From contig JAIQGG010000001.1 in NCBI GenBank assembly GCA_020072785.1, positions 620,001 through 684,000 of the forward strand: a stretch of 64,000 nucleotides of DNA, read 5' to 3'. This DNA comes from Terriglobia bacterium (GTDB lineage Bacteria; Acidobacteriota; Terriglobia; Acidiferrales; UBA7541). The translations under genes and the position numbers were made by a program. Under the pieces are notes generated by a model. It had not been told where the DNA came from, made no database searches, and saw only the letters and a list, made by a program, of their open reading frames with translations. Below, piece after piece: positions 29,560 through 35,231 of this stretch (positions are counted from its first letter, which is position 1; each line of letters starts with the position of its first letter).

Positions 29560-30186
29560 CTATGGTATTCCGCCAGCCGTCTGCTTCTCCCGCACGAATT
29601 CATATCGGTCCGAGAACGCTTCCGCATCTTCCGCATGGGTCAATGCAAAGTTCCGCAGCTCCTCGGTTGTAGCGGTGATCAATAAGCCGTCATCCGTATC
29701 CAGCGTTGCAAGAGCGAGTTTGCCGGCTTTGACCTGTTTCTTTACCCAGGGGTTGTTCAGAAATTCAATACGCAGAGTTTTCTCGTCTGCGTGGATCCGG
29801 GCGATCATGTGTGCCGTCACCACGGGATAGGGGTAGAAGGTAAAGTCGCGGTCCTCCGTGTCGGGCCCTTCAAAATCCATGAATAGAAAATTGCCCAACT
29901 TAACGATGCGCGCGGTACTGACGAGGCCGCCCTGATCCTTCCGCTTCGTGTCGGACGCTGTCACGTTGTAACTCAGACCATCCTTCCCCCGGGCGAAGAT
30001 CCAGAGCGGCTCGTCGCTTTTCGCTTCTTCCTTTGTCGGCTCCGCGTGCCGCCATTCTCCCAGCATCTGCTCGTCAAAAATCTTGTCTTCCCGGATATAA
30101 AGCGAAAACAGAGCCATCGCTGGCCCGCAACTCACCAATGCCGATGCGAGGCCAATCACAGCAAAAAAGAGAAGAGTCTGTTTCAT
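29560..30186 (-). CDS. predicted lipoprotein, unknown function
   Basis: A 208-residue product with a short signal ending in lipobox ASALVSC. The mature part has beta-rich segments (LGEWRHAEPT, GLSYNVTASDT, FLFMDFEGPD, RDFTFYPYPVVTAHMIARI) that suggest a lipocalin- or Hsp-like barrel. No family is recognised with confidence. It is transcribed away from the DinB gene, which lies upstream on the same strand at 30276; they may form a two-gene unit with a ~90-nt gap. Confidence 0.7.
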   Translation of the reverse strand: MKQTLLFFAVIGLASALVSCGPAMALFSLYIREDKIFDEQMLGEWRHAEPTKEEAKSDEPLWIFARGKDGLSYNVTASDTKRKDQGGLVSTARIVKLGNFLFMDFEGPDTEDRDFTFYPYPVVTAHMIARIHADEKTLRIEFLNNPWVKKQVKAGKLALATLDTDDGLLITATTEELRNFALTHAEDAEAFSDRYEFVREKQTAGGIP

Positions 30187-30275
30187 CTTGTCCTCCTGCG
30201 GAAAAATCGGCCGGAGCCTGCTTGCGCGGTTTGCCGCCGGCCGGTTTCAGGCTGGAAATAACTTGTGGAACAGGC

Positions 30276-30848
30276 TTACTTGCGGGGTCGCGATTCGGGC
30301 GGCACGAGCTTGTTCAGCCGGTAGTAGACCACCAGCTGGCCGTAATGCTCCTGCGCGTGCGTCGAGAGCATGTCGGCGAGGTCGTCCACCCGGGTCATGG
30401 CGTTGGCGAAGGGATGCTTGACCTCGGCGGCAAGACCCGCGTCGCCCTTGGCTTTGATCACTTCGGCGCCGTCCGTGAACGACTTCTTCACCGCGGCGAC
30501 GACGTCGGCCTTGGTCTTGTACTTGTCCCGCGGCAGCTCTTCCCCTCCATCCTTCGTGCCCTTGACCGCGTCCGCCAGGAAGTAGTTCACCGCCGAGACG
30601 TGCAGCAGCTGCTCGGCAAACGTGCGCACTTCCGGCGTCGGTTTGTATTCTAGTTTGTCTTCGGGGAAGTCCTCGGCCATGGCGATGAGCTTGCGGCCGG
30701 CCTCGTTCCACCGTGCTAGCACCGCCTCGGAAGCGCTGGGCGCAGCCTTCGGCGTGTCTTGCTTCTTCGCGGCTTCCTGCGCGAACGCCGGCAGCGCCGC
30801 GAGGCTCACCAATACGGCCAGAGCCAGGATCGAAATACTCTTTTTCAT
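30276..30848 (-). CDS. exported DinB family protein
   Basis: ATG 30848 is preceded by GGAGG at 10 nt, giving 190 residues with a signal peptide (SILALAVLVSLAALPAFAQ). The mature protein is a four-helix DinB/YfiT-type bundle: SEAVLARWNEAGRKLIAMAE, FAEQLLHVSAVNYFLADAV and the third metal-ligand helix MLSTHAQEHYGQLVVYYRLN. The histidines in LLHVS and THAQEHYG could bind metal. DinB-fold proteins include thiol S-transferases (bacillithiol, mycothiol). The export signal is unusual for such enzymes but frequent among Acidobacteriota homologues; substrate unknown. Confidence 0.85.
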   Translation of the reverse strand: MKKSISILALAVLVSLAALPAFAQEAAKKQDTPKAAPSASEAVLARWNEAGRKLIAMAEDFPEDKLEYKPTPEVRTFAEQLLHVSAVNYFLADAVKGTKDGGEELPRDKYKTKADVVAAVKKSFTDGAEVIKAKGDAGLAAEVKHPFANAMTRVDDLADMLSTHAQEHYGQLVVYYRLNKLVPPESRPRK

Positions 30849-30993
30849 GTGGTTTTGTCCTCCATCGAATTTGCGTTCCGGAAATTCCATTTCCAGCAGG
30901 CCACTCGCCTGGTTTCGTGCTATGCCCGAATCCGCCCCCGGCGGAGTCGAAGGACCCCCATCATACTTAGGAAAACGCGGGCGGTCAGCGGAA

Positions 30994-31021
30994 TTGCACG
31001 GGCACTAATCATGCTAGACTT
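30994..31021 (+). promoter_or_regulatory. promoter of the metallophosphoesterase gene
   Basis: TTGCAC (30994-30999), 16-bp spacer, TAGACT (31016-31021) with an extended TG. A leader of about 20 nt holds GGAG before GTG 31049. Confidence 0.7.
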
Positions 31022-31048
31022 AAGGTTCCAAATGGAGACGAAGCAACG

Positions 31049-33341: not shown

Positions 33342-33655
33342 AAAGTGTGTGTTTGCATAGTGATGCGCAGTAGTGCGTAAGAGGGTGAAAAGAAGTGAAG
33401 AGGTAATGAAGAATGAGGGCAGAGGGGGCGCGGGGAAGCAGGGAGTGAAGTAGCGAGGAGGTTTCGAACGACGATCGGCGATAACACGGAAAATGATAAC
33501 AGATATGTAACGGTAATGCAATGTAATAGCTAGCAGTTTTCGAATGGGTTGTGGAAAAGGGTGCAAGATCTCGACCCTGTGGAATGCAACGCAGGCGGCG
33601 GGCGCTCGGCGCCGAGGGGCCGGCGGCATCCCGCGCTTTCTTCCGTTTCCGTGTG

Positions 33656-33673
33656 CACAGGCGGAAGCCTGTG
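33656..33673 (+). repeat. hairpin repeat CACAGGC-GGAA-GCCTGTG
   Basis: A perfect 7-bp stem with a GGAA tetraloop, without a U-tract. It looks like a REP-type palindromic unit; related CACAG/GGCTG hairpins occur at 60061 and 62051. Confidence 0.55.
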
Positions 33674-33693
33674 CTACCCGAATGAGGCAGCGG

Positions 33694-33722
33694 TTGCGGC
33701 ACCCCCTCGCCGGTGCGATAAT
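33694..33722 (+). promoter_or_regulatory. promoter of thiC
   Basis: TTGCGG (33694-33699), 17-bp spacer, GATAAT (33717-33722) with an extended TGC. Leader of about 60 nt; no THI-box (CTGAGA) is present in it or upstream. Confidence 0.6.
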
Positions 33723-33788
33723 TTGCATTCCACGCGGGGGCATGGCGGATGCGCCGACGTGTAGCGTTTTAGCGATTTAGGGGGCTCT

Positions 33789-35231
33789 ATGGCACTGCGT
33801 GATGGCTGGATCGAGAAGCGGGAAGCGGCGGCGGCGAAGGCGAGCGGCAATGGCAACGGCCAGCATGCCTCCGATGGACGCAATATGACGCAGATGCATC
33901 TGGCGCGGCAGGGCGTGATCACGGAAGAGATGACGTACGTGGCGACGCGGGAAAAGCTGGAGCCGGAGCTGGTGCGCAGCGAAGTGGCGCGCGGGCGGGC
34001 GATCATCCCCGCGAACATTCACCACCGCAACCTGGAGCCGATGGGGATCGGCATCGCCTTCGGGTGCAAGATCAACGCCAATATCGGAAACTCCTCGACC
34101 ACATCGAATGTGGAGGAAGAGTTGAAGAAGCTGCACCACGCGGTGCACTACGGCTCGGACACGGTGATGGATCTTTCGACCGGCGGAGATATCGCGACGA
34201 TCCGCAAGGCGATCATCGCGGCTTCGCCCGTGCCGGTGGGCACGGTGCCGGTGTATGAAGCGCTGTCACGGGTGCGGCGTCCGGAAGACCTGACGTTCGA
34301 GCTGATGAGGGAAGTGATCGAAGAGCAGGCCGAGCAGGGCGTGGACTACATGACGATTCACGCCGGGGTACTTCGCGAGCATGTGCCGCTGGTGCGCAAG
34401 CGGATCACGGGGATCGTGAGCCGCGGCGGGTCACTCATGGCGCATTGGATGGAGCATCATAAGAAGCAGAATTTTCTTTACGAGCGGTTCGATGAGCTGT
34501 GCCAGGTCTTCCAGAAGCACGACGTGAACTTCTCGCTGGGGGATGGATTGCGGCCGGGGTGCATCGCGGACGCCAGCGACGCGGCGCAGTTCGCGGAGCT
34601 GAAGGTGCTCGGGGAGCTGACCACCAAGGCCTGGGAGCACGATGTACAGGTGATGATCGAAGGCCCGGGGCACGTGCCGCTGGACAAGATCAAGGAGCAG
34701 GTGGACAAGGAGATGGAATGGTGCCACGAAGCGCCGTTCTATACGCTCGGCCCGCTGGTGATTGACATCGCACCGGGCTATGACCACATCACCAGCGCGA
34801 TCGGGGCGGCGATGATCGGATGGCATGGGGCGTCGATGCTGTGCTACGTGACGCCGAAGGAACACCTGGGGCTGCCGAACCCGGAGGACGTAAAGCAGGG
34901 AGTGATCGCATACAAGATCGCAGCGCACGCGGCGGACGTGGCGCGGCACCGGCCGGGCGCGCGGGATCGCGACGACGCGCTGAGCTATGCGCGGTTCCTG
35001 TTCGACTGGAACAAGCAGTTCGAGCTATCGCTGGACCCGGAAACGGCGCGGGCCATGCACGATGAATCGCTGCCGGACGATTTTTACAAGGACGCGAAGT
35101 TCTGCTCGATGTGCGGGCCGAAGTTCTGCTCGATGAACATTACGCAGATGGCCGATAGCGAAGGCGGGCACGACCAGACGGAGCGGAAGCTAAAGTTCGT
35201 GGAGTTGCTGACGAAGGTGCAGAAAGCGTAG
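33789..35231 (+). CDS. thiC: phosphomethylpyrimidine synthase ThiC
   Basis: The 480-residue enzyme has the typical ThiC landmarks: [16 protein letters not shown], the segment [33 protein letters not shown], and the C-terminal cluster motif [12 protein letters not shown] (CxxCxxxxC) that holds the SAM-cleaving 4Fe-4S cluster. It converts aminoimidazole ribotide to the thiamine pyrimidine HMP-P. It has its own promoter but no visible TPP riboswitch, unlike most bacterial thiC genes, and no other thi gene is in the window. Length matches the short bacterial ThiC form. Confidence 0.95.

What the first reader, a model, noticed from the sequence alone, without database searches (positions are those of the whole stretch)
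29600..34300. Plus-strand G/C bias reverses near an AT-rich, DnaA-box-like island: candidate replication origin or inversion boundary
Hand counts of 60-base lines: 15361-15420 26 C/17 G (minus-strand gene), 18361-18420 29 C/17 G, 27721-27780 25 C/14 G; but 34261-34320 24 G/14 C, 48001-48060 31 G/17 C, 56821-56880 24 G/16 C (minus-strand gene). The bias follows the strand, not the gene direction, and goes from negative to positive, as at an origin. At the switch lies a 580-bp gap (33206-33788) with TGTGGAAAA, TGTGGATAT, TGTGGAAAA, direct repeats and an AT-rich block. Against an origin: no dnaA/dnaN nearby, genes on the left are not mainly on the minus strand, and only a few lines were counted.
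Basis: partly seen in the sequence, partly recalled or inferred. Interest (0 to 1): 0.78.

Follow-up and report, generated by a model that had tools for sequence, protein, structure and literature searches.

The report
Dispersed origin-like repeats in soil Acidobacteria
The strand-bias switch in this window sits beside one copy of a previously undescribed ~300-bp repeat, and about 30 copies scattered over this soil bacterium's chromosome sit at the same kind of switch, which suggests that DNA copying starts at many places rather than at one origin as expected in bacteria.

Summary
Plus-strand G/C bias goes from negative to positive near 33 kb (cumulative minimum 32,535), in genes of either direction. 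It is not the unique origin: dnaA-dnaN with a DnaA-box cluster lies 515 kb away and has no skew step. The bias changes sign repeatedly along the 3.73-Mb genome. The 580-bp gap holds one copy (33258-33565) of an unnamed dispersed element, about 30 copies in this genome. Elements mark the negative-to-positive switches: mean 10-kb skew step +0.12, 0 of 20,000 circular shifts as high. All 12 sharp switches found without using element positions lie on the element's C-tract side, 11 within 3.3 kb. The averaged profile fades by about 40 kb each side and holds for genes of both strands. Shorter flanks from over 20 other species show the same polar profile. Most copies carry a sigma-70-like promoter with a 17-bp spacer reading towards the switch. 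Inversion and gene direction are excluded as general causes. Best reading: dispersed, sequence-defined replication start sites, not demonstrated biochemically. The mechanism (promoter-driven transcript aiding initiation 0-6 kb away) is inferred.

The parts
33258..33565 (+). The dispersed element (this copy), head at the left, tail at the right
   Evidence: Recurs in parts at about 30 places in the genome and in same-genus species
33258..33276 (+). Head: C-tract CCCCACCCCCGGTGTTTTT; on the opposite strand AAAAACACCGGGGGTGGGG
   Evidence: Near-invariant across copies; reversed-pattern control has no hits in this genome
33277..33407 (+). Degenerate repeat units (for example 33277-33302 and 33316-33341)
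   Evidence: Direct repeats in this copy; similar ~40-bp units in other copies
33493..33498 (-). -10-like hexamer TATCAT
   Evidence: 17-bp spacer to the -35; same place and spacing in most copies; coordinates read
33516..33521 (-). -35-like hexamer TTGCAT; predicted transcript would start near 33486 and run leftward through the head
   Evidence: coordinates read
33539..33544 (.). TTCGAA palindrome upstream of the promoter (a second one at 33463-33468)
   Evidence: Conserved in the tail alignment
33550..33558 (-). DnaA-box-like TTTTCCACA at the tail end
   Evidence: Conserved in one group of copies, absent from another group
33233..33251 (-). Two further DnaA-like words (TTTTCCACA, ATATCCACA) just outside the head
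   Evidence: not shown to be part of the element
30600..33258 (.). Zone of the - to + skew switch (minimum 32,535), on the head side of the element
   Evidence: Cumulative skew nearly flat here; the same offset at the other sharp switches
32450..33205 (+). Gene on the head side, DUF4197 protein, ends 53 bp before the head
   Evidence: Pfam PF13852, E 1e-75
33789..35231 (+). Gene on the tail side, thiC
   Evidence: Pfam PF01964, E 6e-192

Best explanation
The gap carries one copy of a dispersed intergenic element that marks a site where replication forks frequently start and run outward in both directions. About 30 such sites are spread over this chromosome, so it appears to be replicated largely from many sequence-defined sites rather than from one oriC at dnaA. 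Shown: the element family; its association with - to + strand-composition switches that fade over about 40 kb each side; the offset of the switch 0-6 kb to the head side; independence from gene direction; recurrence in other species; a promoter-like signal at a constant place in most copies. Inferred: that replication causes the asymmetry; that a transcript starts at the element's promoter, runs through the repeat units and the G-rich end (GGGGGTGGGG), and helps open or prime DNA on the head side (R-loop type); that forks load there and leave in both directions. The transcript step is the least certain part.
For: Mean 10-kb skew step at 28 copies +0.124 against +0.014 at random positions; 0 of 20,000 circular shifts reach it; intergenic controls +0.0045. 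12 upward steps of 0.20 or more found without using elements: 11 within 3.3 kb of an element, all 12 on the head side, no downward step of that size. Profile present in genes of both strands and fading with distance. Skew falls between neighbouring elements in 7 of 8 fully held intervals. Replicated in loci of other species. No step at dnaA. Promoter position and spacer conserved.
Against: No replication or transcription data. Several copies show no step (C2:978362, C2:1035698, C2:1338634, C2:1209746). Only 61% of the genome was read, with extra sampling around elements, so counts of switches without elements are a lower bound. Promoter scores overlap those of shuffled sequence. DnaA boxes are not conserved in all copies. 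RNase HI is present. The predicted RNA fold is not exceptional. Flanks in other species are only 1.5-7 kb.
Confidence: 0.62

Rival explanations
1. The elements are break or recombination hotspots at which recombination-dependent replication starts; the asymmetry reflects repair-initiated forks rather than scheduled origins.
For: Would give the same outward fork pattern; no initiator protein was identified.
Against: The conserved promoter and its fixed spacer are not expected. A break-resection model with exposed 3' strands predicts the opposite skew sign (reasoning, not tested).
Confidence: 0.15
2. The elements are passengers that insert preferentially near start sites defined by something else.
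For: Copies tend to lie about 100 bp downstream of a gene's end on the head side; the switch is offset by 0-6 kb from the element; the tail side is AT-richer.
Against: Every sharp switch found has an element on a fixed side. No second shared signal was found in the head-side zone by k-mer scan. It still implies many start sites.
Confidence: 0.12
3. Recent inversions between repeats scrambled a normal two-arm skew.
For: Dispersed repeats in both orientations can recombine.
Against: Predicts + to - boundaries at elements too; steps are upward in 25-26 of 28 and none is -0.20 or below. Smooth decay on both sides and one fixed polarity are not expected. Copies are far less than identical.
Confidence: 0.04
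4. The skew reflects gene direction or transcription.
For: Skew correlates with gene direction in many bacteria (general knowledge).
Against: Flanking genes are convergent in 10 copies, ++ in 7, divergent in 7, -- in 4. The same profile appears in + and - genes. Sense third-position skew is slightly negative, the wrong sign for divergent genes. Intergenic controls of each gene arrangement average -0.001 to +0.028.
Confidence: 0.03

Closest known systems
Multi-origin, DnaA-independent chromosomes of Synechocystis 6803 and Nostoc 7120 (PMC7198777)
   Same: Irregular GC skew, a dnaA gene present, replication from many sites reported
   Different: There the start sites are reported as multiple and asynchronous; in the passages read, no repeat family that predicts them is described. 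Here an element family predicts the switches, and replication has not been measured.
Dispersed origins of yeast and archaea with skew jumps (PMC3459929, PMC3269012)
   Same: Upward skew jumps at origins, decline in between, jumps of unequal size
   Different: A bacterium; the element is not shown to bind an initiator
Canonical bacterial oriC at dnaA
   Same: - to + switch; some DnaA-box-like words
   Different: Many copies, far from dnaA, no conserved box cluster
R-loop or transcript-primed origins (ColE1 RNA II, mitochondrial CSB II, E. coli oriK in RNase H mutants)
   Same: Promoter some 200-300 bp upstream of a G-rich transcript segment on the side where initiation is inferred
   Different: Likeness of anatomy only; no transcript or hybrid shown; RNase HI present
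REP elements and MITEs
   Same: Short, dispersed, intergenic, non-coding
   Different: Longer and modular, with a promoter-like signal at a fixed place, tied to replication-type skew; no terminal inverted repeats seen in this copy

Membership tests
Canonical bacterial oriC | Cluster of DnaA boxes | tested here: not met
   Two exact and one near word in this gap, but only the tail one belongs to the family and it is missing in one group of copies
Canonical bacterial oriC | Next to dnaA/dnaN or another replication gene | tested here: not met
   Neighbours are DUF4197 and thiC; dnaA is 515 kb away
Canonical bacterial oriC | Unique - to + skew switch on the chromosome | tested here: not met
   Many switches
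Dispersed replication origins (works-like) | - to + jump in strand composition, independent of gene direction, declining with distance | tested here: met
Dispersed replication origins (works-like) | Replication initiates there in cells | not testable with these tools
   Needs read-depth or nascent-strand data
Transcript-primed (R-loop) origin | Promoter reading through a G-rich segment towards the initiation zone | tested here: inconclusive
   Sequence signal and direction present in most copies; transcription not shown; individual promoter scores overlap shuffles
Transcript-primed (R-loop) origin | RNA-DNA hybrid used as primer | not testable with these tools
   None
Known Rfam RNA family | Match to a curated model | tested here: not met
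   No match in the gap at gathering score; one chance-level match at E 2.7
MITE or REP element | Terminal inverted repeats and target-site duplication | tested here: inconclusive
   No inverted repeat pair at the element's ends in the repeat search of the gap; empty sites were not compared
Inversion boundary | Both + to - and - to + boundaries at the repeats | tested here: not met
   Upward steps only among sharp ones

The most novel reading that the evidence does not exclude
A lineage of soil Acidobacteria replicates its chromosome mainly from dozens of dispersed copies of a dedicated, promoter-bearing origin element (transcript-initiated, not dependent on an oriC at dnaA), giving a bacterial chromosome with a eukaryote-like sawtooth replication landscape.
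Probability: 0.4. Interest if true: 0.96.

Novelty: categorically new. Interest (0 to 1): 0.87.

Why it matters
Bacterial chromosomes are taken to start replication at one oriC; [quoted passage not shown] Cyanobacteria with multiple origins are the known exception (PMC7198777). A sequence-defined element family that marks dozens of origin-like sites would make multi-origin replication in bacteria directly testable (delete, move or clone one element), and would give skew-based origin finders and growth-rate estimates from read coverage a lineage in which their one-origin assumption fails.

Tried and rejected
Single oriC at this gap: rejected (many switches; dnaA elsewhere). oriC at dnaA dominating composition: no skew step there. 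Inversion boundary and gene direction: rejected as general causes. Known RNA or riboswitch in the gap: none. A second sequence signal in the 0-6 kb head-side zone: the k-mer scan gave nothing convincing. Loss of RNase HI as a cause of R-loop origins: RNase HI is present. Stable structured RNA: not supported (mean z -1.1). Skew steps measured within 1.5 kb of the elements: no step, because the switch is offset to the head side. Other repeat families as controls: too few copies. Literature searches for a described counterpart in Acidobacteria found none.

Full report
WHAT WAS CHECKED. The window is G000:C1:620001-684000 of a 3.73-Mb, 11-contig genome. Relatives that carry the same repeat are soil Acidobacteria metagenome assemblies, several labelled gp2 or Terriglobia. 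GC skew changes from negative to positive near 33 kb; the cumulative minimum is at 32,535. Third-codon-position skew on the plus strand is mostly negative left and positive right for genes of both directions.

NOT THE ORDINARY ORIGIN. dnaA lies at C1:137505-137987 next to dnaN (my reading of the adjacent frame), with several DnaA-box-like words in the stretch upstream of dnaA. There is no skew step there (10-kb step +0.012). Along the genome the strand bias changes sign many times in blocks of tens of kb, mostly with the same sign in plus and minus genes of a block.

THE GAP CONTAINS A DISPERSED ELEMENT. Searching the gap against the genome and relatives returned many copies of parts of it. 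The element is about 300 bp, up to about 400 in some copies. At one end is a near-invariant C-tract 'head' (CCCCACCCCCGKTGTTTTT). Then come degenerate ~40-bp units, a purine-rich stretch, and a 'tail' with TTCGAA and, in many copies, TGTGGAAAA. The head pattern has 35 hits in the genome, some of them overlapping, against none for the reversed control; with copies found by tail or by profile the count is about 30. A tail model finds the family in 17 same-genus genomes (this one included) and 2 same-family genomes, with three single weak hits elsewhere among 299 class genomes. Rfam has no match in the gap.

ELEMENTS SIT AT SKEW SWITCHES. I read 2.27 Mb (61%) of the genome, with extra sampling around elements. 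At 28 copies the mean skew step (10 kb right minus 10 kb left) is +0.124, upward in 26; random positions average +0.014. Slightly different flank limits give 25 of 28 and +0.117. Shifting all element positions together along the held sequence gives a maximum of 0.076 in 20,000 shifts against 0.123 observed. Intergenic control sites away from elements average +0.0045. Looking for steps without using the elements gives 12 upward steps of at least 0.20: 11 lie within 3.3 kb of an element (about 10% of scannable positions are within 3 kb of one) and one at 9.7 kb; no downward step of that size was found. Caveat: the scannable sequence is enriched for element surroundings. Of five further copies found afterwards by profile, three step from negative to positive (one with only a short left flank, one only 4 kb from a known copy), one has a consistent flank on the only side that is well covered and one has no step.

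POLARITY AND EXTENT. In all 12 cases the switch lies on the head side of the element. Oriented by element, the mean GC skew is about -0.03 to -0.08 on the head side beyond 3.5 kb and about +0.10 on the tail side, crosses zero near -2.5 kb and fades by about 40 kb. In third codon positions, averaged over both gene directions, it runs from about -0.11 at -8 kb through zero near -3 kb to about +0.25 on the tail side. Gene direction cannot cause this: genes as a whole have a sense GC skew of 0.008, and flanking genes are convergent in 10 copies, divergent in 7 and co-directional in 11. Between neighbouring elements the skew falls from first to last third in 7 of 8 fully held intervals. Upward jumps with decline between them are what dispersed bidirectional initiation leaves in yeast and some archaea (PMC3459929 abstract, PMC3269012).

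OTHER SPECIES. In 47 distinct loci from other species the oriented skew is -0.072 at -8 to -3.5 kb (13 of 14 negative), -0.035 at -3.5 to -1.5 kb, +0.064 just left of the head, and +0.059, +0.074 and +0.145 going out on the tail side. Nineteen further loci found by the tail model agree close in: head side +0.110 (16 of 18 positive), tail side +0.099 (14 of 19). Some element positions are shared between species. These come from separate assemblies, which speaks against an artefact of one assembly.

HOW IT MIGHT WORK. On the strand opposite the head pattern, most copies carry a -35/-10 pair at a constant place with a 17-bp spacer (TTGAAA-N17-TATCCT and variants), 230-320 bp from the head and reading towards it. 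The individual scores overlap those of shuffled sequence, so the argument is the constant position and spacing. Upstream of the promoter are TTCGAA and, in many copies, a DnaA-box-like word. The predicted transcript ends in AAAAACACCGGGGGTGGGG or close variants. The simplest model is that this transcript helps open or prime DNA on the head side, as RNA II does in ColE1 and as CSB II transcripts do in mitochondria (general knowledge; no homology claimed). Forks would then leave in both directions from a zone 0-6 kb away. Transcript, hybrid and initiation are inferred. RNA folding does not support a specific structure, RNase HI is present, and no initiator protein was identified.

COMPARISON WITH WHAT IS KNOWN. 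Single-origin replication is the bacterial rule (PMC4403523). Synechocystis and Nostoc replicate from multiple sites without needing dnaA and have irregular GC skew (PMC7198777). Xia (PMC3269012) argued for multiple origins in some bacteria from skew alone and warned that horizontal transfer and other factors can mimic it. The present case differs because a repeat family predicts where the switches are and on which side. I found no described counterpart in the papers searched. That library lacks most subscription journals, so novelty is provisional.

VERDICT. The association is solid; replication initiation as its cause is likely (0.62); the transcript mechanism is a hypothesis.

Noticed in passing
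window 24335-24528 (+): Molybdenum cofactor (Moco) riboswitch, 53.1 bits against a gathering score of 36.
   Followed up: no
head and tail flanks of the elements, genome-wide: The tail side is AT-richer (about 0.40-0.43) than the head side (about 0.33-0.36) for at least 2.5 kb, and on that side several copies have 1-4 kb without a well-scoring gene.
   Followed up: partly
elements C2:978362, C2:1035698, C2:1338634, C2:1209746 of G000: Copies with no skew step; possibly inactive, recent or weak, and useful as natural negative controls.
   Followed up: no
just beyond the tails of several copies, for example L035, L063, L065, L066: Another short repeated motif, GTCAAAAnCCCCACACG...GGGCCACCCGCC, follows some elements.
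   Followed up: no
G000:C1:419912-420343 and C1:487602-487976: A clear RNase HI gene (E 1.4e-46) and a weaker RNase H-fold match; the close relative G007 has only the weaker kind in this search.
   Followed up: partly
L001 2350-2640 (G000 C1:138.35-138.65k): Cluster of DnaA-box-like words upstream of dnaA, the conventional oriC place, without a skew step.
   Followed up: yes
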